Source: Heterodera schachtii (taxonomy: Eukaryota; Nematoda; Chromadorea; Rhabditida; Heteroderidae). From it: 64,000 nucleotides of DNA. Every line of letters begins with the position of its first letter. Positions within the stretch are counted from its first letter, which is position 1. The notes beneath the pieces were generated by a model. That model saw only the letters and a list, made by a program, of their open reading frames with translations. It did not search any database and was not told the DNA's origin. The stretch is from positions 214,197 through 278,196 of the forward strand of contig SIJG01000023.1 of assembly GCA_023374025.1 (NCBI GenBank), given 5' to 3'. Shown piece after piece: positions 6,080 through 62,405 of this stretch. The position numbers and the translations under genes were made by a program.

Positions 6080-7344
6080 TAGAGACCGGACAACAGGGGT
6101 CGGAGGGATCCCGAGTCGGGATCCCGACTGAATCCCGATCCCGATCAATCCCGAACATTTTGGAAAAACGATCGGGACGGATCCCGAGTCGGGATCCCGA
6201 CCGAATCCCGATCCCGATCAATCCCGAAGATTTCTTTTCGGGATCCCGCGGGATTATCGGGATTTGCTAAAATCCAATTTTTTATTTATTTATTGGCTTT
6301 TTAATTTTAGTTTTGAGCTAAGTTTTGTTCAAATTCTTATCTAATATTTATAATTGATCAATTCGATTGTGAAAAATAGGGATGGTAATTATATTAGGTT
6401 TTTATAAAAAAATTTTTCATAATTTAGAATATCATGCCTAAAAAGTCAGACTGTAGGGTCAAAAACTAAAACATTTAACAACATAGCTTTAAATATTTTT
6501 TTTACAATTTAATCAATTAATGCAATTTCTGTATTTTCGCCTCCTATTATCATTTTTAACAATTTTAAGGAAATTAGAAAATCGTAAACTGCATCGGGAT
6601 CAAAAATCAAGAATTTTTTCGCAGTGAATTTTTCAAAAACTTTAGGAGAACAGGGGGGAGGCCGGCGGTGCCGATAGGCGCCGCCGGGAAAATTTTGTAT
6701 TTGAAATGTAATTTGTTAACAGAATTATCCTAAAACTGTCCATATTTTGTGATTTTGAACCAATTTATAAGAAAATAATAGGTTCTTGGGTTTGGTGATA
6801 CCAATTGGCACCGAAGGAAAAATATGTAGACAACAATTTTATTCTGATTATTTGACAAAATTCTTAGAAATCATTGTTCCATGAAATTATCTAATAAGAT
6901 TTAGAATACTGTTTTAGGAATTTTAAAAAATAATTAATGATAATTCTTTTTTGGGAAATAAAAGTCAAAATGGTCAACTTATGCGTCAAATTTTGAAAAT
7001 CTTAATGGAATTTTGGAGAACTGTGAAGAATTTTTTGGGATTTTTAAGAGATTTTTTAAGAAAAATTAGCAAATGACAATATTTTTAAATTTAAAATTCA
7101 AGATCTTAATTAAAAAATGGAGATTTTTTGAAAAATTATCGTGACTTCAATCCCGCGGGATCCCGCGGGATTGGTAAAATGGTCGGGAGGGATCCCGATT
7201 CGGGATCCCGATGAAATCCCGATCCCGATCAATCCCGATGAATTTAAAAAATCGCTCAGGACGGATCCCGAGGTCGGGATCCCGAATTTAATCCCGCGGG
7301 ATCCCGAAGAAATCCCGCGGGATCCCGATCCCGTCCGGTCTCTA
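6080..7344. mobile_element. Non-autonomous hAT-type element, 1265 bp
   Basis: Perfect 12-bp terminal inverted repeats TAGAGACCGGAC (6080-6091) and GTCCGGTCTCTA (7333-7344). Exact 8-bp flanking duplication ATACCCAC at 6072-6079 and 7345-7352. Both subterminal regions (6105-6265 and 7150-7335) are arrays of GATCCCG/CGGGATC units in opposite orientation, probably transposase-binding arrays. The interior is AT-rich and non-coding and contains GGCCGGCGGTGCCGAT. The open frames over the GATCCCG arrays are repeat artefacts. Confidence 0.88.
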
Positions 7345-21600: not shown

Positions 21601-24600
21601 GGAGATTTCCTCAAATGATGATGTGATCGAGTCTGATCACAGCATCTACAGTGAGTGATCAGCTAGTTGATAGAGAGACAGAGTGCCATTGTTTAATTAC
21701 AGTAGAGAGGACTCTGACAGTATGCCCTATAAGCATTCATTGGATTTTCTTTTGTCCCGCCCGAGCCCTGGCACACAAATTCTTGAATTACTTAGACTTT
21801 TCTGTTGGTCGCTTCTTAGCAGTACCTACAGTATCCTAGTGCATTATTTTTTGAGAATATCTATACAGTAATGATGGGCATTTACAGTAACCAAATCTCA
21901 ACAGTAATTATCAATTTGGCAACAATTTTCCCAATTTTTCAGGTGTGGCCTGGATGGTTTCTCTGCTCATCTGTTTCCCGCCATTGCTCGGCTGGCGACC
22001 GAAAAGGGTGAGTTTATTTGAAGAAAAAAAAACTCCAAAACAAAATGGCATTTGCCATTTTTAAAGGCACATAATTTTTGGGATTTTCGTTAGGCCCTTA
22101 ACTTTGACCTGGGGTTTTCCTGGGTTTTTTATAGGAGTTTATTAGGGCTCGACCTGGATTTTCCTAATTTTGATTATGCTCCTGAACCTAGGGGTTTCCT
22201 GGATTTTTTATAGGAGTTTTATTAGGGCTAAACCTAGATTTTGCTAGAAATACCCTTACAAAATTGGCCAATTTTAAACCAATATTTCAAAAAAAAAAAC
22301 CCCAGGCACATGCTCTATTCGGCTGTTTGGCTGCCACCTCGATTTTTTAAGGGCCTGGCTCATAGGATTTTTTTTCTCGAAAATACAGGCCCAAGTGAAG
22401 TCATTTTCAAAATTTCTGTCTTATTTTTTTTCAAAAAATATTTTTATTTTCAAATAATTTTTTTGTTTTGCCAAATTTAATTAAAAAATATATTATTATT
22501 TTTTAAATGCAATTTCAGTGGCGGGGAGAGAAAATTACATTTGAAAAAAAAACTAATTTGCGAACTGTGCTGTTGTTGCTAATGAAGTCACTAAGAGGGG
22601 GCATAGGGCATACTGTAGGGGCGAGGAAAGTGGCGGAAGTTGTTGGCAATTAGAGCCCCGGGGGGGCGACCGGCGGGAAAACCCCGCGGGGGGGGGGGGT
22701 CATTAAATTAGCTGGGAAAAGCCCCTGCGGGGGCGGCGGTGGAAAGCATTGAAAAAATAACACTAATAATGTTCACAGGCGGACTTTGATGATTAAAAGG
22801 CGTAATTAAATAAAAATTTAATTAAAAAATGGTTCAACAAATTTTAAATGGGGAAAAAAAGCTACAGTATGCAGCATGCACATAAATCTGAAATGCTACT
22901 GTAACCAAATGGATTATTTATTGCCTCTGCTGAGCTTTGTTGACCTTAATTACCTAGTTAAATATCTCTAATTTCACTACAATGGTCAGCTGGAAAATGC
23001 ATTTACAAATTAGCGTGGCCTCGATTTTCGATAATTTTTGAAAAATATTAAATTTAAATCCAAAAATACACCGAAACGACCAATTTTGGAAAAATTCTGT
23101 TAATGATCACAATTAATTTACATTCCGGCCCGATCATTTTTCCGTAAAAATAAAATGGATTAAAAAATGCCAAAAAAATTTAAAAAAAATACTTTCCCAT
23201 TTAATCATCTAAAAAGCGACACGCAAATTCACTGGCAATTCGAAATCCCAAAAAAGGATTTGCTTAAAATGACTGTGTCCCCATTTTACCGTAGGAATGG
23301 CAAATTGTGCCGCTTTTTGTAATTTTTTGGCACCAAATATTAAATAATTCCCCAAATTTTGTTCAGCGTCCCGGCGAATGTACCGTATCCACCGAGTTGG
23401 ACTACGTACTGTACTCCTCGCTGGGCTCCTTCTACATCCCGGTGGCTATCCTCGTCGTGGTGTACATGCGCATTTACATGATCACCAAGCGGCACAGTCA
23501 GCAGCGACTGAAGGACACCCAACGGATGGGCCAAACGCTGTGCCAACTGACGAGTGGCGGCGGCGGTGGAAGCGGTGCCAATGCCAAAAACAGCAACAGC
23601 AGAATGGGCCCGGCGGCAATGATCACGGCACATCGGGTGGCCGAGGCTGGCGGTGGTCGTGCCAATAGTGGCGGCCGATCGGAGCCCAAACGGCAGATCA
23701 AGTGGGTGCTTGGGGGGATGGGGTATTTACATAACTGATCAAAGCAGAGAGAGAGAGGAGAGAGGCAGTGAGAGAGAGGGAGAGAGTGTGTGTGTGTGTG
23801 AGAGAGAGTCAGAGAGAGACAGAGAGAGAGAGAGAGAAAGAAAATAAAAAGTAAATTATTTATACAAAAATTTAAAAAATTTATTTAATTTGAAAGGGGA
23901 AAGAGTAGGCGATAATGAAAGGACAGGGATGAAAAAAAATACGAGAGAGTACAGAGAGTGGGAGTGAGAGCGAGCGAGAGTCAATGAGAGGAGAAAGAAG
24001 TGGTCGTCGGCGTGCGACGACATGATGACCACCTGCTGCTGCCTCCACCCCCCCCCCCCACTTTCTCCCCCTGTCTTTCACTCACTCACACACTCTCTCA
24101 TACGTTTTCCTCTTCCGGAAGCACTCTCTTTCGTCCGTCTTGTTTCTTTTCCTCCACTTCTCCCTCTTCGTTTACGCTATTTTCCCCCATTTTTTCATAT
24201 CTCTGCTCTAAAAAGTCAATTTTGGTCGCTTAAAATACGACCTATACGTTTTCGATGCTGCCGGTTCCATTTCCGGAACCCATTTTGCTGTTCCGGCATC
24301 GCTTCTCGGCCTTTTGGCTAAGATCAAAGTGTAGTGATTTTTGCTCCGAAAAATATTATTTTTCTTTTATTCCACAAAATAAAACACTTTGTTCTGTTCC
24401 CCTCTGCCCGTCCTCAACTCCGTCTGCCCAAATATTTGCCTATTTTCCTCACTTGACCAAAACAATCAATACTTATTGACACCGCCAATGCATGACCCTT
24501 CCAATTCCACTGCCCAATCCGACCCAAATATCGACCTGTCGGTTGGCAGTGCTCAAAATCGTACTGAGCAAGGCGATGAAAGTGGCGAACTTGGCGAAGA

Positions 24601-27600
24601 GGACGTAGCTCACCAGTACGTCCTTGGAGTGCCAATTGCCCTGCCTTTGCCATGTCGGTTTTGCGCTGGCCGATCATTCAACACTCACGCCGGACTATCA
24701 AAGCATTTGAAGAAGGACCACACACCGCAAAACACATGGCATTTGGCCTTCCGCTGCCATGGCTGCCGACAAATTTTTGCGCAATTGAGGGCATGCAATG
24801 CTCACCAGAAGAAGTCGGCACAATGCCAAGGCGCACAGCCGATCCAAGAGGAACGGCACCAACCACAGCACGCGAATGTTGTTCGCCAGGTCCGACCGCG
24901 GGCTCCTCGCCTCCAGGAGCCCGTTTCCCCGGCTCAACCCGCTGCTGCGGATCAGTCCGGGACCACTCCCAGCGGTACGGGGGCACGGACAGACCGCATG
25001 CAGTGCCGGCGCGAATCGGATGTACCGTCTGGTCGTTCGACCCCGCCTGCATTGGTTGCACAACGGCACTCGGCAGGCACCGCCTCGCCAAACGGAAGTG
25101 ACCGAAGCGCACAAACAGCGCGCAGCCGTACCGCCCGCCAGAGCCAAACACCGCCAGCACATTTGGTCGCCAATGCTCAACCTGAACCGCACGACAACCA
25201 AACTGGTCCGGTGGTCGCTCAACGGCAACAAAATGCACAACAACGCGAATGGGTTCGGCGGTTCAATGCGGTGGCAAACGCCGAGCAGCTTGACGACCTG
25301 TTGGACGAGTTCACCAACGCAGTCCGACAACAGGCACAAGTGGCATTCACACAACGGCCCGCTCAACAACAGCAAAGGCCAAGACCGCCACCGAACCAAC
25401 ATGGCAGACGCCGAAACCATATGAATGCCGATGCCGGTCCGCCATTTGACCCCGTCGCCGCCGCTCGCATTCAAAAGCTGTACCGCGCCTCACGCGCTAG
25501 AGCGTACCGGGAGATCACTGAGCAGGCGTCACCGCTGTGCCAGCTCTCGGCTGAAGTGCTTCATGAGCATTTCACAAGTGTATTCGGCCCCAGCCCGCCT
25601 GTCGCTGAGCAAATGCCCAACTCCGTGCCATTCTTCGAACCGCTCGCCGACAACAGCCCGTTCACAGCCAACTTCAACAACAACGAAGTCTCAGAGCGGC
25701 TCAAGCGGTGCAGCAACACCGCACCCGGACCCGACAACATCCGCTACGCGGTTTGGAAAAAGTTTGACCCCGGCTGCCACATTCTCACCGCCATCTTCAA
25801 TGCCGCCAAACAACAACAGCACATTCCAACGAGCTGGCGCCGCTCAACGACAGTGCTCATCCACAAAAAAGGAGCCCGCGAGGACGTGAACAATTGGCGG
25901 CCAATTGCACTGTCGAACACGCTCGGAAAGCTGCACTCGGCTGTGCTCGCAAACCGGTTGGCACAATGGGCTATCCGAAACAAGCGGATTAGCCAGGCAC
26001 AAAAGGGCTTTATGCCCGTCGATGGTTGCTCGGAACATAATTTCATGCTCCAAAGCATTCTTCAGGATGCCCGCAGAGAGCGAAATGAATGTGCCATCGC
26101 ATGGCTCGATTTGACAAATGCGTTCGGCTCCATCCCACACGAAGTGATCTTCCGATCACTCAAATGGTCCGGCCTCGACAATACAACAGTCAACACCATC
26201 AGACTACTGTACAACAACAACGCGACCCAAATACGGCACACAGGCGGCCTCACTGACGACATCACCATCCGCGCAGGCGTCAAGCAAGGGTGCCCTCTGA
26301 GTCCGATCATCTTCAACCTCGCACTCGAGCCCATCCTTCGCGCACTTGACAGCCAAAACATCGGCTACCAAATCGGCGGTCAAACAACATCGACATTGGC
26401 CTATGCCGACGACCTGGTGCTTGTGTCCAACAACACACAACAACTCCAACAAATGTTAACCACAACCGGACAAATTGCTGATTGGGCCCATCTTCGGTTC
26501 AATCCAAGAAAGTGCGCGACGTTGGTCATCGATGGAAAGCGCAGGATTGCCCAGCCGACAACATTTACCATCCAAGGCGGACAACCACCTCCAATGAACA
26601 TCGATCAGCACTACGAACATCTCGGCGTTCCGACCGGTTACCAAAGAGCACAATCCGCCGACCACATCATTCAGCGAATGTCCGACCATGTCGACAAAAT
26701 TGACCGATCACTGCTCGCCCCGTGGCAAAAATTTGATGCAGTAAACACTTTCGTTCTGCCATCAATCGCCTTCCATCTCAAAAATGGGGAAGTACGCAAA
26801 GCCCCGCTGAATGCGCTGGACAAAAAGATCGTCCGTGCGGCAAAGCGGTGGTTGAACCTCCCGCAGCGTGCCGGAACAGAGCCGCTTTACTTGAGCAATA
26901 CCATGGGAGGTCTTGCACTGACACCGCTGAACGCCCTCGCCGACCTGAGCCAAATTGTTCATGGCCTGCGGCTCCTCACCTCCCGCGACTTGGCCGCAAC
27001 AACAATGGATTTGCTCTGCACCGTCGTTGCCAAGCGTCTGCGCCGGGCCCCACGACAACACGAATTGGCCAAGTACCTCAACGGCTCGATGGACGGCGAC
27101 ATGAACAACGAGTCAACAGACATTTCTTCGACCTGGACGCGGCTCAGAACGGCAACGAGGCGACTGCGGACAAAAGTTGGCGTCGAATGGGCAGTCAACG
27201 ACGGCTCAATGCAACTGCTCCTGAACGGGTGCCAAGTCCAACCGAAAGCGGCCGAATTCTGCCTGCGGTCAGCCATCCGCGACTTCTACCACCGCCGCCT
27301 GCTGTCCAAGCCAGATCAAGGGAAGGCACATAGTGTGACAAGCGTTAGTGCCGCCTCAAATCACTTTCTAGCCCACGGCAACTTCACCCGGTTCGCCGAC
27401 TGGCGCTTCATCCACCGAGCCCGCCTCGGCTGTGTCCCACTCAACGGCACGAGACGGTTCGGCCAACCGAACAACAAACAATGCAGGCGTTGTGGTTTCG
27501 GCAACGAAACGCTCCCACACGTGCTCTGCCACTGTCCACCGATGCTCGCCACCATTGGCCGTCGCCACAATGTGATCATGGAACGCCTGGTCAAAGCCTT

Positions 27601-30600
27601 CCGACCACCAGCAACAACTGTCGTCCGAGTCAATCAAACGGTGCCAAACTTCCCCAACAACGTTCGGCCCGACATCTTGGCCATGGACAACACGCTCAAA
27701 ACCGCATTGATCGTCGACGTCTGCATGCCATTTGAGAACCGGTACGGCGCCTTTGAAGCCGCACGAAACGAAAAGCGGCGCAAATACGACGAACTGGCAC
27801 AACACCTTCGGCAACAGGGCCTGACTGTGTTCTTGGATGCGTTTGTTGTTGGCCCGCTCGGTGGGTGGGACCCCCACAATGAATTGGTCCTAAACAGAAT
27901 GCACATTGGCCAACACTACCGGCACTTGATGCGCAAACTCATGGTGTCCGAGGCAATCAAATGGAGCCGAGACATTTACGTCGAGCACATCACCGGCACA
28001 AAGCAGTACAACGACTGGCCAATGGCAGAAAATGGAGAGGGAGACGAATAGAGGGGCCATTTCCCATTTTCAAATTTCCCTGTGCCAACAGAAGCGATTC
28101 ATTTATTTTTGTCCGTCATTTTTGCCTCATTTTCACATCTATTTCTCACAATGGATCTCTCATTTGTCTCTTTACTCACTCTCGCAAATCTCTACGTGCA
28201 CTGACCCGGTTGACCGACAGTTTCTCATTCATTTGATCACCAAAATCATTTATTTGTTTTTTCCAAACATTCTCTCAAATAAACTCTTATCTGTTCTTTA
28301 CGGCTTAATCTCCGTAACGACCCCTACCGGGGTCAAAGAGATTAACCAATTTTTGGAAAAAGGTCGTAGCAGGGGGCTTGCCCCCTCTCGACCGCGCGTC
28401 GGCCCGGTATTGCACTTACCTCCGGGAGCGGCGCATCTCCCCCGCGGGGGAGATCAAAAGAGCAAAAGCATTGGAAAGCAATTCAAATCCCAGGGGATTG
28501 ATTCTTCAAAATTTCGCCCGAATAATTTTTGGAAATTAAAATCAATTAATATTTTTTGAAGAGCTTTGTTTATGTCATCCCATGCACATATCATTCATCT
28601 CCTGAACTAAATTGCAATTACAAAAAATTGCTGTCCGAATTGAAATCAAATAACAAAATAGAAATTTTTTTAATTTGGCGGCTCCTCTGTAGGTTGCCAC
28701 TGATCAAATGATTTTTTAATTTAAAATTAAATAAAAATAAAAATTGTTAAAGAGTAAGAAAGATTATCTCAGGTAAAAATATCTGTTAAAATATTTTGGG
28801 TATTCCTTTTTTGTATTCCTGGAAAAATTGGTTGCAATTTCGAGTCGAGAAGAAATTGGATATTTTTGTGCTAATCCAAACTTTTTTTTGATGAAAAGCA
28901 CCAAAACTCAGAGATTTTTTTGAAATTAAAAATTTGGTATCATTTTACAGCCGATTTTTGTATTCATTTTTTGTATAAGTACAGGTTCAGCCGGAGCATT
29001 CCACTGTCTGTGGATGACATGTCATCGACGGATCCGTCCACGTCAGTGTGGCAAATGCCCACAACAACAGCGGCGGGTGCCAACACTGCCAAGGCGGAGG
29101 AAAAGCCGCCGGAATCGAATGCCGTGCCGAAAACGATGGCATCGACAATGGCATTGCGCAATGGTGGTCAGCTGCAGATGAACAACGGCGGAAACTCAAC
29201 AAAATCGGCAGCAACAAACGGTGCCGTCGTCAACCATTCCAAGCAGTACCAGGAACAACTGCTGGAGCAACAACGGAGAGCGAGGGAGGCGCAGAGCAAC
29301 GACGACTCTAACGAGTCGGCCGCAACAACAACAATGGCATATGATGAGGAGCTGCTGCAGCACAACCACCACAATTTGAAGCAGGACAGGGGAGAGGAGG
29401 AGGAGGGCGAGGAGGACAACAGCAGGCGAAGACAACTGCTCAGGGAACAATGCTTCAAGGTGGGGGAGGGTGGAATGGCATGGCACGGACTGGTCGAGAG
29501 TCTCGAGACCGGAAGAATTGATTTTGATCGATTGAGAAATGTGAGTGATCTGGCAGGCAAATATGTTAAGTGTATGAGTGTTTTAAAGCATTTCTCGGGT
29601 TTGCACAGTCGAAAGTCGCAGGAATGGCCAGAGGAATGAATGCTGTGGCCGAGAGTCTCGAGACAAAAGAGCGATAATTAAAAAAAAACTGCAAAATTTC
29701 CGAGTCGAGGCCCGAAAATTGGGAAAAAGACTCGGGCATAATCACAATGGCTTTTATTTCTTTAATTGCTAAACCACTCCCGGTGGGAAAAAATTGGAAT
29801 TTCTAAAAAGAAATGGCTTTTCAGCAGCCCTACAAAAAAGGCACTGTTGGGCCACCGACAAAATTGGCACTTTTCTCTCGATGGTTCCGCAAAGGGTGCA
29901 CCGACGACAGCTCGGCACAAATTGTGCGCATGCGCAGTTTGGAGAAGCGGAAACGGCGGCTTAAAGTCAGTGGGCGGGGGGCGGGGCGGCGATAAAAAAA
30001 TACTTTTTTTTTAATTTTGCATTTGGCAAAATTAAATTTTCAAAAAAAAAATTTCAGGCCAAAGAAAGGCAGGCCACGTTGCTGCTCGGCCTCATTCTGT
30101 TCGCGTTCATTGCCAGTTGGATGCCATTTTTTGTGAGCATATTTACGAACTAATTAATCGTTTGATAATTAGGCAGCCAAAATGGATTTTATCGGAAAAA
30201 ATTGTAAAAAAACGATGGAGATAAAGCCGGGATAAATGTGTACAAAAGACATACGAGATACAGTACAAATAGGTGCCAAAAAAAGTTTGTGGAAGTAAGG
30301 CACATTCGAGAGTTTCTGAATGCATTTTTCGAAAATTAAAAATTTTAAATCATGTCAAGTAACAAAAAAAACAAATTCAAATTGAATTTTTTTAATAATT
30401 TCTTCATTAGGAGCAGGAATTAAAAAAATTTTTAAAATTCCTGGCAAGTATTTTTTCATATACCGTATTTTTTCTTTTTATCCCCCCGGGGGGGGGGATT
30501 ATTTTCAAACTCCTCAGAAAGTGGGGGGGGGGTGATAATTAGAGACGGGGGGATTAATGGAGACGGTGGGATTATTTTCAAACTCCTCAGAAAGGGGGGG

Positions 30601-49110: not shown

Positions 49111-49182
49111 GACTCCGTGGCGCAATGGTAGCGCGTCTGACTCCAGATCAGAAGGTTGCGTGTTCAAGTCACGTCGGGGTCA
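49111..49182 (+). tRNA. tRNA-Trp (CCA)
   Basis: 72 nt with acceptor stem GACTCCG/CGGGGTC (one G-T pair), D arm TGGCGCAATGGTAGCGCG, anticodon loop CTCCAGA with anticodon CCA, T arm TGTTCAAGTCACG and discriminator A. The sequence is nearly that of known metazoan tRNA-Trp. A T-rich run right after the 3' end (TTTTTAATTTTTTTTTTT) serves as pol III terminator. No intron. Confidence 0.97.
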
Positions 49183-55920: not shown

Positions 55921-58900
55921 TCAGTCGGTCCACGCGCGAGCCGCGCGCAACGCGTCCCACGCGACACGCGCGTAGCGCTGCGCCTCCGCACCGATGTCCG
56001 CCGCGCCGGTGATGCCACGGCCAACTATCACAATGTCGCACGCGTCACGCGCCACCGCTTCCACGGGCGTACGCCAGCGTTGGCCGAGTCCGTCGCCGGA
56101 GGCGCCGCTGAGATTGACGCCTTTGAGAGGGGGAGGGGGGGGGGGGGGGGGGTAATTAAATGAAAAAATTGAAATATTTTTTTTTAAATAAAAATTGGGT
56201 TGGATTTTTGACGATGGGAACGCAATGAGACCTTTCGAAAATTTACAAATATCTAAACGGCAATTTTTTATTAAATTGAATTTAGAGCTCTAAGTTTTTA
56301 AAAAAGCCTGGACCTGGGTTCCATGTTGGACAAAAACCCAGGAAATCCAACTCCAGGAAAACCCAGGTTGCCAAAAATTAACTGGACGTGGGTCAAGGAA
56401 AAATCAAAAATCCAGGCCTGGACCGAGGCCCAGGTGGAGTTCTAGTTATTGTTTAATCATGAGAGAGATTTTTTAAATAGTTAATTAATTATACGCATTT
56501 AGTTGGTAATAACCAAAAAAAAAAAGAAATTTTTTTTAATTTCCACCCCCCCCCTCACCGGGTGTCCAATGCAAAAATTGTTGGTGCTGTTGTTGCTGCT
56601 CCTCCGTTCCGTCGTTGCACTCGCCGCATCGCTGCTGACAGATGAATCCGGCCACCAATTTGTCCCCGCATTCGCGCCCAATCCGCGCACATTTTGCCGC
56701 GTAAGCGCCGTCCGTCAGCGCCCCGTCGGTGCTGAGTTGGGCGATCAGCAAAAGGCCGGACAGACGGCGAGACGGACAGGCGACAATCTGTCACGTCAAA
56801 AATAGATTTTCCCTAATTTTTCAATATTTTTTCGGGAGGGGGGGAGGCAAGCATCCGAATTAAGGGTGAGAGACTCGCAATTCAGTAATGTACCGATTTC
56901 AGTGCCAAAATGGACGCCATGCCGGGCAGGGCGTGTGCCGTGACGAGATCGGCCCAATCCGCCACCACCGGCAACCGACCGCCGGCCAATTGCATTTCCA
57001 TCGTTTTGCCGGTGTCCGCAAATTTTCTAATAACAAAAATTTCTGTAATTTTTTGTCAGGTTTTTTCGGGGTAAAAAATGGTCCTCCTTTTATTGGTAAG
57101 AATTAGTCAGGAATTTTCCGGTAATATTTGTAAGATTTTTTGGCAAATGTGTTCAGCCAGCCAACCCACCGATCCTCCACAATCAGAAATTGGTGCGCAT
57201 CGGCCAATTGGTGCAATTTGGCCACAAATTCGACGCCAAAATCCACCACAATGTCGTGGTGCAATTTCACGGCACAGACATGGTCTTTGACGGCGGAAAC
57301 AATCTGAAAAATTAAACAATGGCATATCAGTGTATTATTAAAAAAATAATAATAATAACAATTTGCAATGAATCGGAGAGAGTGGCGAAAAAATTTCAAA
57401 ATTTTTTTTAGTTTTACCTGTCTAAAATTTGGATTTTTATTTTTCTGTTTTACAAGAGGTGCTTGTTTTGATCGTCGATTTAAAAAAACAGGAATATTTT
57501 TGTATATTTTTCACCCAAAAAATAGATTGAAACTTAAAATTTCATTTATATTAAATTTTTGTTTAAAAAAACCTTCTAAGTTTTAGAGAATGGTCGTGAC
57601 TTACAAAAATTATTGGCTTTTGTGCCATTTTCCATTATTTTTAATGCCATTAAAAATAGTTTTTTGCCTCCAAAATTTGGTCGCAGTGTGTGCAGTCGAC
57701 GGCCAGGCAAACGTTGGTCCGTTTGGCCACCATAATTTGTGCCAACCGCCGGTTCAATGTGCCGTCAGCAAATTGTTGGGCCCAACCGACGGAAGTCGTC
57801 GACGGCACGACGGGAAGGAGGAAACCAACGGCACGCATTCTGCTGAACATTTTAACAATTTGTCTTGACTTTTTGAAAATTTGGCACAAAAAAGGCCGAA
57901 AAAACAATTTTGAGCCAAAATAATTTAACAAATGTGTTAAATCTTATTTACTTTCTCCCGCGACGGCTTACGAAAATTATTTATTTCTATAATAATTTAT
58001 AAATTATTTAATTTGATTAATATTTCCGATAAAAAATATTTATTATACAAAAAAAGGGAAAAAATGTTTTGGACCTTGTGGGGATTGAACCCACGCCTTC
58101 TCGCATGCAAAGCGAGCACTCTACCACTGAGTTAAAGGCCCGATGAAACTGGACCGCTTAATTTTTACTAATATGCCCAAAGAATTAATGCAATTTCTAA
58201 TTTTAGAAACAGAAAAATAAAAAGCAAACAAAAATTCTAAAAAAACAATTAATTAGAAAAACATTCCTTTTTACCTTCCTTTTTCTCCGTTTTTTGCCCC
58301 TGCAAATTCATGGCACTGTCGTCAAAGGTCGGATTTTGGAGTTGGTGAACAATTTGCGCCTTTTTGCCCGCGTCAATGGTCCCGCACTGCTCCAAAAAGT
58401 CCAACAGCGAACCCATGGAAAGCAAACTGAAAAGAATTTTCAATCAAACTAACAAAAAAATGGGAATTAACTTCGACCAAACTAATGCAAAAATTTATTT
58501 AACTCGAAATTTTGATAATTAAAAATTCCTAGGGAAAAGAAATCGAGTCACAACGGCAATTGACAATGAGTAGAAAAATAAGAAAATTAAATTGGGAAAA
58601 AGAAACGAATCCCTTTCTCAAGTTGGAATAAATCCATTCTTGAAAAAAAAACGCAATTTTTTGTTCGAATTAAGGTCCGGGGTTTCAGAATTGGGCAAAC
58701 CAGAGTTAAGATACGTAATCAGCACCCTCGAAACCCCTAAAAACTGGTTTTGAGTCCAAAATTTAAAAAAAAAAGGATTGCCGAACCCTCCCAAATATAA
58801 AAAAGTTACATGAAAAAATTGTGTAAAATTTTTTAAAAATTCCGCCCTGGCCCACCTCCGTAAAACAATGTCGGCCTCCTTGGCCAGTCGCTGCTCACCG

Positions 58901-61588: not shown

Positions 61589-61776
61589 ATCGCTTCTCGG
61601 CCTTTTGGCTAAGATCAAAGTGTAGTATCTGTTCTTTACGGCTTAATCTCCGTAACGACCCCTACCGGGGTCAAAGAGATTAACCAATTTTGGAAAAAGG
61701 TCGTAGCAGGGGGCTTGCCCCCTCTCGACCGCGCGTCGGCCCGGTATTGCACTTACCTCCGGGAGCGGCGCATCTC
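61589..61776 (+). ncRNA. U2 snRNA, uninterrupted copy
   Basis: About 188 nt, the usual U2 length. 5' end ATCGCTTCTCGGCCTTTTGG, branch-site recognition GTGTAGTATCTG intact, stem-loop IIa TACGGCTTAATCTCCGTA, Sm site AATTTTGG (four T), stem-loop III (GCAGGGGGCTTGCCCCCTC), stem-loop IV ending TCCGGGAGCGGCGCATCT. The downstream CGCGGGGGAGATCAAAAGAG is shared with copy 1 and may hold the 3' processing signal. It gives the pre-insertion sequence for the retrotransposon target. Confidence 0.97.
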
Positions 61777-62405
61777 CTCCGCGGGGGAGATCAAAAGAGG
61801 AAAAGCATTGGGAGAATCAATTGAAATGCCAAAGGATTGATTCTTCAAAATTACCCGAGGGCATTTTGGGAATTAAAAACCATAATCGACAAAACCACAT
61901 GATTAAAACTATAAATAAAAGCTTATGACTTATATCAGTTTTTTCGGCACATTTTTCCAAAAAAAAATTTTGGGGAACGGGGGGGGGGGGGCGGCCGTAC
62001 CGTTAGGCGCCGCCGGTAAATTTTTTGAGAATTTTACCGCTTTCCTTAACAGTTTTGTTCCAAAAATGACCAAATTTGACTTTTTTTTATGATTTTTGGC
62101 CGATAGGCACGGCCGAGAAAAATTTTTTCACTTTTAAATCTATTTTTTTACAATTGGCGAAACAAAAAAAAGCATTGGTTGGAAAATTGAATTAACGCAA
62201 AATAAGCGCCAATTTGGCGTTATGCATATAAATTTTTAATTTATTGATAAATTTAAAAATTCGAACTTTCAATATTCGTTTTCATTTTACTAGCGCCTGA
62301 AATTACATGGAAGAAATTGCTTAATTTTTGGTGCATTAATTAATTAAATTTCAAATTTTTCTCAATTAATACATTAAACTAGATTTCTCCCGCAAATTTG
62401 AAACA
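61777..62405. other. Intergenic between U2 copy 2 and TRMT112
   Basis: About 61980-62110 belongs to the dispersed GGCGGTGCCGAT family (here GCGGCCGTACCGTTAGGCGC followed by CGCCGGTAAATTTTT). Otherwise AT-rich with no gene. Confidence 0.5.

What the first reader, a model, noticed from the sequence alone, without database searches (positions are those of the whole stretch)
24298..28436. RLE-type non-LTR retrotransposon inserted inside the U2 snRNA branch-site recognition sequence
Seen: U2 nucleotides 1-38 end ...GTGTAGT at 24335, then 3953 bp with one intact RT/RLE ORF, then ATCTGTTC... at 28289. The second U2 copy at 61589 supplies the empty site with identical joining sequence. The insertion falls in GTAGT|A, the part of U2 that pairs with intron branch points, so target choice is at the most conserved stretch of the gene. 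Known: Utopia (RLE) and Keno (APE) elements target U2. Inference: a nematode member of the Utopia lineage or a new U2-targeting lineage.
Basis: partly seen in the sequence, partly recalled or inferred. Interest (0 to 1): 0.93.

Follow-up and report, generated by a model that had tools for sequence, protein, structure and literature searches.

The report
Jumping gene inside U2 splicing-RNA genes
In this likely nematode genome a 4-kilobase jumping gene of the known Utopia kind has broken U2 splicing-RNA genes again and again at one exact spot, and seven of the thirteen intact U2 genes carry a changed sequence at that very spot, which would likely make them poorer targets.

Summary
U2 nt 1-38 (24298-24335), a 3,953-bp insert (24336-28288) and U2 from nt 39 (28289) are as described; the insert has one open frame with RT and restriction-like endonuclease. 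In the whole genome 10 of 10 element 3' ends found run into U2. Five near-identical copies sit in U2 genes, four of them in clearly different surroundings, and one has an empty counterpart matching up to the exact junction. Site, domains and RT tree make it a recently active Utopia element; a second Utopia lineage, sister to one in Globodera pallida, shares the site. The element is a new member of a known kind. The surprise lies outside the finding: of 13 intact U2 genes 6 carry the usual ATCT at nt 39-42 and 7 carry TACA, from the first base after the insertion point and inside the branch-recognition region. The TACA genes look functional by sequence. They are seldom occupied (1 of 8 against 7 of 13), but the statistics are weak (p = 0.07); escape from Utopia is only a hypothesis.

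The parts
24198..24204 (+). TATCTCT, conserved upstream motif of U2 genes (-100)
   Evidence: at -90 to -101 in 10 of 10 U2 promoters given; in 0 of 6 U1/U5 promoters given
24241..24245 (+). CCTAT, likely proximal sequence element of the occupied U2 gene (-57)
   Evidence: CCYAT at -55 to -59 in 24 of 25 snRNA promoters given
24298..24335 (+). U2 snRNA nt 1-38, 5' piece of the broken gene
24336..28288 (+). Utopia-type non-LTR retrotransposon (family 1), 3,953 bp
24336..24487 (+). 5' untranslated region; no ribozyme match in Rfam
24488..28051 (+). single open reading frame, 1,187 aa from the first in-frame ATG
   Evidence: dN/dS 0.06-0.24 between copies, 10 pairs
24653..24721 (+). C2H2 zinc finger 1 (CRFC...H...H)
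   Evidence: Pfam zf-C2H2_4 E 0.019, below its cut-off; residues read
24755..24826 (+). zinc-finger-like motif 2 (CHGC...H...C)
   Evidence: residues read; no Pfam match of its own
25859..26527 (+). reverse transcriptase domain
   Evidence: Pfam RVT_1 E 1.1e-33
26402..26413 (+). RT catalytic YADD
27482..27535 (+). CCHC motif upstream of the endonuclease
   Evidence: aligned to R2 chains
27665..27787 (+). restriction-like endonuclease core, RPD...D...KRRKY
   Evidence: aligned to R2 chains, domain i-Evalue 2.8e-8
28052..28288 (+). 3' untranslated region ending AAATAAACTCTT, no poly(A) tail
28289..28441 (+). U2 snRNA nt 39 to end, 3' piece of the broken gene
61589..61780 (+). intact class A U2 snRNA gene (empty site, ATCT at nt 39-42)

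Best explanation
The insert is a member of the Utopia lineage of RLE-encoding non-LTR retrotransposons, found in this genome only at U2 snRNA genes, and it likely inserts by target-primed reverse transcription at a nick between U2 nt 38 and 39. Shown: exact junctions, five near-identical copies at U2 genes (four with clearly different surroundings), a filled/empty pair, a protein under purifying selection, and a second resident Utopia lineage at the same site. Inferred: the element's endonuclease nicks the strand that then primes copying of the element RNA 3' end; its N-terminal zinc fingers help find the site; and the captured U2 promoter with U2 nt 1-38 drives or leads its transcript. Each full insertion splits a U2 gene; the host likely tolerates this because 13 intact U2 genes remain. 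Seven of those carry TACA instead of ATCT just past the cut, and the working hypothesis is that this makes them poorer but not immune targets.
For: Junctions of five family-1 copies all after U2 nt 38. 10 of 10 element 3' ends found are followed by U2: 7 of family-1 type, two of them degraded, and 3 of family 2. Element copies 96.8-99.5% alike, while for nine of ten pairs the near 5' flanks are 79-87% and the outer flanks 42-63% alike. Empty counterpart C109 of filled C47. RT and RLE align to solved R2 proteins, best E 7.7e-69. RT tree. dN/dS 0.06-0.24 over 10 pairs. Utopia's site and domain plan (PMC4640811).
Against: No NeSL, R4, R5 or Dong sequence was available for the tree, and Utopia rows in it are known by host species, not by label. 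The figure showing Utopia's junctions is not held, so identity of the site rests on the paper's text and is good to about 1 nt. Nicking, priming and transcription are not tested. The family-2 copies do not all leave the same 5' junction: one has a 20-bp duplication (U2 nt 39-58) and one lacks the U2 5' part. The site is shared with the APE-encoding Keno, so the site alone does not prove Utopia. C47, C108 and C109 may be alleles of one locus, so five copies may be fewer events.
Confidence: 0.92

Rival explanations
1. A separate RLE lineage that came to target U2 on its own, not Utopia.
For: Utopia and Keno reached the same site in parallel (paper text), so convergence on this site has happened. 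My tree lacks NeSL, R4, R5 and Dong.
Against: The tree puts it among proteins from species listed as Utopia hosts; the ten best hits are 55-65% identical over 92-99% of the region searched; domain plan as for Utopia.
Confidence: 0.05
2. Assembly joins, or one occupied U2 gene copied by segmental duplication, mimic repeated insertion.
For: C47 and C108 share near 5' and 3' flanks at 95-96% and could be copies or alleles of one insertion.
Against: The other nine pairs have near 5' flanks only 79-87% alike and outer flanks 42-63%, against 96.8-99.5% for the element; the C109/C47 empty/filled pair breaks exactly at nt 38.
Confidence: 0.02
3. The changed site in class B U2 genes has nothing to do with Utopia: class B is a U2 variant with its own branch-site preference, and low occupancy is chance.
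For: Occupancy difference is weak (p = 0.07 for 7/13 against 1/8). One class B gene is occupied. In a crude RNA duplex calculation class B pairs better with AACUAAC (-4.4 against -2.5 kcal/mol) and class A with UACUAAC (-3.6 against -2.6).
Against: The change begins at the first base after the insertion point, and nt 2-71 are otherwise identical in all 13 intact genes.
Confidence: 0.5
4. Class B U2 genes are pseudogenes.
For: Predicted branchpoint stem-loop pairs are broken in class B; no expression data.
Against: nt 2-71 invariant apart from 39, 40 and 42; TACA in 7 of 7; CCYAT promoter motif in 7 of 7; covariation score reached by 0 of 500 shuffles over the 13 genes, 9 distinct. An old U2 pseudogene on C3 (72%) is altered throughout.
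Confidence: 0.12

Closest known systems
Utopia (Kojima and Jurka 2015, PMC4640811); among nematode members Utopia-1_PPac of Pristionchus, which also lacks a protease
   Same: U2 target site, one ORF with N-terminal zinc fingers, RT, C-terminal zinc finger and RLE; several lineages kept in few U2 genes; disrupted and intact U2 genes side by side.
   Different: New host. Two lineages differing in 5' junction in one genome. The host has a U2 class with the target altered; I saw no such thing in the parts of the paper read (parts 1-4 of 5).
R2 (28S rDNA)
   Same: RT and RLE align to solved R2 proteins; likely the same chemistry.
   Different: Target U2, not 28S; outside R2 in the tree.
NeSL-1 (nematode spliced-leader target)
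   Different: NeSL has a Ulp1-like protease and targets SL exons; no protease match here. Not compared by sequence.
Keno (APE, U2 target)
   Same: Same 3' flanking U2 sequence according to the Utopia paper.
   Different: Keno carries an APE endonuclease; this element an RLE.

Membership tests
Utopia | inserted in U2 snRNA genes at the described site (nt 38/39) | tested here: met
   five family-1 copies after nt 38; 10 of 10 3' ends found run into U2; about 1 nt resolution
Utopia | single ORF, N-terminal zinc finger(s), central RT, C-terminal zinc finger and RLE | tested here: met
   the N-terminal fingers rest on spacing of C and H and one sub-threshold Pfam match
Utopia | RT groups with Utopia, not R2 | tested here: met
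   47-row tree, R2 split off at 100/100; Utopia rows identified by host species, not by a label
Utopia | RT groups with Utopia rather than NeSL, R4, R5, Dong | not tested
   no such sequences obtained
Utopia | target-primed reverse transcription | not testable with these tools
   needs biochemistry
NeSL | N-terminal Ulp1-like protease | tested here: not met
   no such Pfam match up to E 1
NeSL | insertion in spliced-leader exons | tested here: not met
   all 10 3' ends found lie in U2
R2 | insertion in 28S rDNA | tested here: not met
   all 10 3' ends found lie in U2
Keno | APE endonuclease | tested here: not met
   no such Pfam match; RLE aligned instead

The most novel reading that the evidence does not exclude
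The host has evolved and kept a second, working class of U2 snRNA whose branch-recognition sequence is rewritten (GUAGUA-UCU to GUAGUU-ACA) starting at the first base after the Utopia insertion point, as a set of retrotransposon-resistant U2 genes: an arms race fought inside one of the most conserved stretches of the spliceosome, with altered branch-site choice as the price.
Probability: 0.3. Interest if true: 0.88.

Novelty: new member of a known kind. Interest (0 to 1): 0.55.

Why it matters
The element itself adds a well-documented, recently active Utopia with a filled/empty pair and two co-resident lineages, which helps explain how a parasite survives in a target of about 20 gene copies. 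The larger question it opens is whether essential snRNA genes can escape such a parasite by changing the bases it needs. The seven TACA genes alter positions that pair with the branch site and form the branchpoint stem-loop (PMC13167188, passages); for one of them, human n.38, a patient variant A>G is listed as possibly disrupting that stem-loop (RNU2-2, PMC13083260, passages). If the TACA genes are expressed, an animal is running two U2 snRNAs with different branch-recognition sequences, which is directly testable.

Tried and rejected
Ribozyme at the 5' end, as in R2 (recalled): in 24250-24800 up to E 5 only U2 and one sub-threshold snoRNA matched. TACA-type U2 elsewhere: exact patterns gave 0 hits in viral contigs and in prokaryote genome contigs; neither is expected to hold nematodes. 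Branch-point consensus from the window: too few sites (0 CTAAC with a TTNYAG end). Naming the organism: a neighbouring gene gave one distant hit from an unnamed source, 50% over 49%. I suspect a Heterodera from assembly size, but H. schachtii IRS in PMC10946958 is 190 Mb in 705 scaffolds against 178.5 Mb in 356 contigs here, so I leave it open. ATCAG at the occupied class B gene as an ancestral site: less likely, because its nearest relative 13 kb away has TACAG (92.0% in body plus 3' flank, 91.5% in promoter; next best 81.1% and 78.5%; 8 of 13 intact genes compared); a junction with AT from read-through RNA and CAG from the target is preferred, not shown. Papers: searches (14 of 14 listed; 15 of 1,540; 12 of 27; 2 of 2; 9 of 11; 12 of 28) showed no title or abstract start that describes such a U2 class or Utopia in a nematode beyond the 2015 paper; most of the 1,540 were not seen. 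Read: PMC4640811 parts 1-4 of 5; passages only of PMC13188248, PMC10946958, PMC13167188, PMC11482624, PMC8357632, PMC13083260 and PMC5718144. The original paper on the branchpoint stem-loop (PMC2872779) is not held.
Full report
Observation. The U2 numbering here is that of this gene; from recall it has one A more than human U2 before GTGTAGT, so nt 39-42 here correspond to human 38-41.

The element. One open frame, 1,187 aa from its first in-frame ATG at 24488. Pfam finds RVT_1 (E 1.1e-33) and two sub-threshold zinc-finger matches; no Ulp1 protease. The best solved relatives are R2 proteins; the RT, the CCHC and the RLE core RPD...D...KRRKY align, and YADD is intact. The 5' untranslated region is 152 bp, without an Rfam ribozyme match.

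Copies. A DNA search of the 178.5-Mb assembly and a protein search find four copies with the whole frame open, one copy (C31) lacking 44 codons in frame, a degraded relative on C23 (409-411 kb, with a second piece at 407-408 kb), and a second family at C12, C20 and C23:303-304 kb. Searches with the 3' untranslated regions give 7 family-1-type and 3 family-2 ends. All 10 continue into U2 at nt 38/39. The tool scores only its best candidates, so counts are lower bounds; every candidate of the first look was scored, 38 of 257 were. The remaining protein matches are 24-31% identical and were not pursued.

Independence and age. Pairwise, the five family-1 elements are 96.8-99.5% alike. For nine of ten pairs the near 5' flanks (-330 to -1) are 79-87% alike and the outer flanks 42-63%; the exception is C47/C108, at 96.1% (near 5'), 84.6% (outer 5') and 95.3% (3'). 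C109 holds an intact U2 gene whose flanks match C47 at 97.9% over 1,083 bp up to U2 nt 38 and at 97.6% over 575 bp from nt 38: a filled/empty pair with 0 or 1 bp of target duplication. C47, C108 and C109 may be alleles or paralogues. dN/dS between copies is 0.06-0.24 for all 10 pairs.

Two lineages, three kinds of 5' junction. The C12 copy of family 2 is 61% identical to family 1 in protein, and its closest relative in the tree is a Globodera pallida protein (100/100 support). The C12 copy is 5'-truncated and flanked by a 20-bp repeat of U2 nt 39-58; the Utopia paper reports 20-bp duplications in reptiles and none in arthropods. The C23:303-304 copy lacks the U2 5' part. The C20 copy keeps U2 nt 1-38 and has lost the stretch between RT and RLE.

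Family placement. The tree holds 42 of 120 listed proteins (43 chosen, 1 dropped as too short; 236 hits in all), both families and three R2 segments. R2 splits off at 100/100. Rows from Dendroctonus ponderosae, Pelodiscus sinensis, Camponotus floridanus and Ladona fulva, species in the Utopia host table, lie with the two families on the other side. Family 1 itself groups with two unnamed metagenome proteins at 88/91. Utopia's defining site and domain plan are met. The element is filed as Utopia, with the reservation that NeSL, R4, R5 and Dong were not in the tree.

U2 genes. The U2 model finds 13 whole genes without an insert in this assembly (in which 46 of 15,015 candidates were scored). An exact pattern with four free bases at nt 39-42 finds 14 sites: 7 ATCT (6 intact genes and the 5' side of C12) and 7 TACA (7 intact genes), no others, and none for the reversed control pattern. 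I call these class A and class B. Over the 13 intact genes, nt 2-71 are invariant except 39, 40 and 42, which differ as a block between classes. Class B members differ from one another in the 3' stems. Over 9 distinct sequences of both classes 5 of 45 pairs show a change on both sides; the covariation score is 0.109 against 0.069 shuffled, reached by 0 of 500 shuffles, and 0.025-0.073 with the partners slid. Related sequences can exceed shuffles without structure, and one class B row is locally misaligned in helix 4, which may account for one of the five pairs. CCYAT lies at -55 to -59 in 24 of 25 snRNA promoters given (3 U1 and 3 U5 genes of the 18 and 19 matches found, 5 of 6 class A, 7 occupied genes, 7 of 7 class B; the miss is a U5 gene), against 8% for shuffled sequences. 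This makes class B unlikely to be dead. Expression is untested.

What the class B change touches. In human numbering the pairs of the branchpoint stem-loop include U32-A38, G31-U39, A30-C40 and A29-U41, and the branch helix uses A38, U39 and U41 (PMC13167188, passages). Class B replaces A38, U39 and U41. Its stem-loop would lose those pairs; a crude calculation gives +8.3 against +4.9 kcal/mol for the named pairs, values useful only for comparison. [quoted passage not shown]

Occupancy. Class A: 7 of 13 genes occupied, or 9 of 15 with the degraded pieces. Class B: 1 of 8. One-sided Fisher p = 0.074 and 0.038; 7 of 13 against 0 of 7 intact TACA genes gives 0.022; family 1 alone, 5 of 11 against 0 of 7, gives 0.054. 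The last two leave out the occupied class B gene. The genes are not independent, and three class A loci may be alleles. The occupied class B gene, hit by family 2, reads ATCAG after the element. Its nearest relative has TACAG, so the junction may combine two bases from read-through RNA with the target's CAG. If so, TACA lowers but does not abolish insertion. This is a hypothesis.

Verdict. The finding is real and correctly read: a Utopia element, new member of a known kind.

Noticed in passing
L063:1759-1952, L059:1946-2139, L066:1601-1793 and 6169-6361, L068:1897-2089, L064:1661-1853, L065:1571-1764: Seven intact U2 genes with TACA in place of ATCT at nt 39-42, the Utopia insertion point.
   Followed up: yes
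L051:1960-5559: 5'-truncated family-2 Utopia flanked by a 20-bp repeat of U2 nt 39-58, unlike the 0-1 bp of family 1.
   Followed up: partly
L052:1690-4779: Family-2 Utopia in a class B U2 gene, with ATCAG (neither ATCTG nor TACAG) after the element.
   Followed up: partly
L060:1848-1907: Class-B-like U2 fragment starting at nt 40, just past the Utopia cut; I saw no element next to it in the stretch read.
   Followed up: no
window 24003-24021 and the same stretch upstream of 61589: GTCGTCGGCGTGCGACGAC inverted repeat about 290 bp upstream of class A U2 genes, varied in some copies; not seen by eye in the class B upstream regions aligned. Possible distal promoter element.
   Followed up: no
window 28277-28288; L052:4611-4622: Both Utopia families end in AAATAAACTY plus a few bases: an AATAAA right at the 3' end without a poly(A) tail.
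   Followed up: no
L062 (C3:3131149-3131320): Old U2-like pseudogene, 72% identical, changed throughout; useful contrast to class B.
   Followed up: no
window 49111-49182 (+) and 58070-58141 (-): Two ordinary tRNA genes.
   Followed up: no
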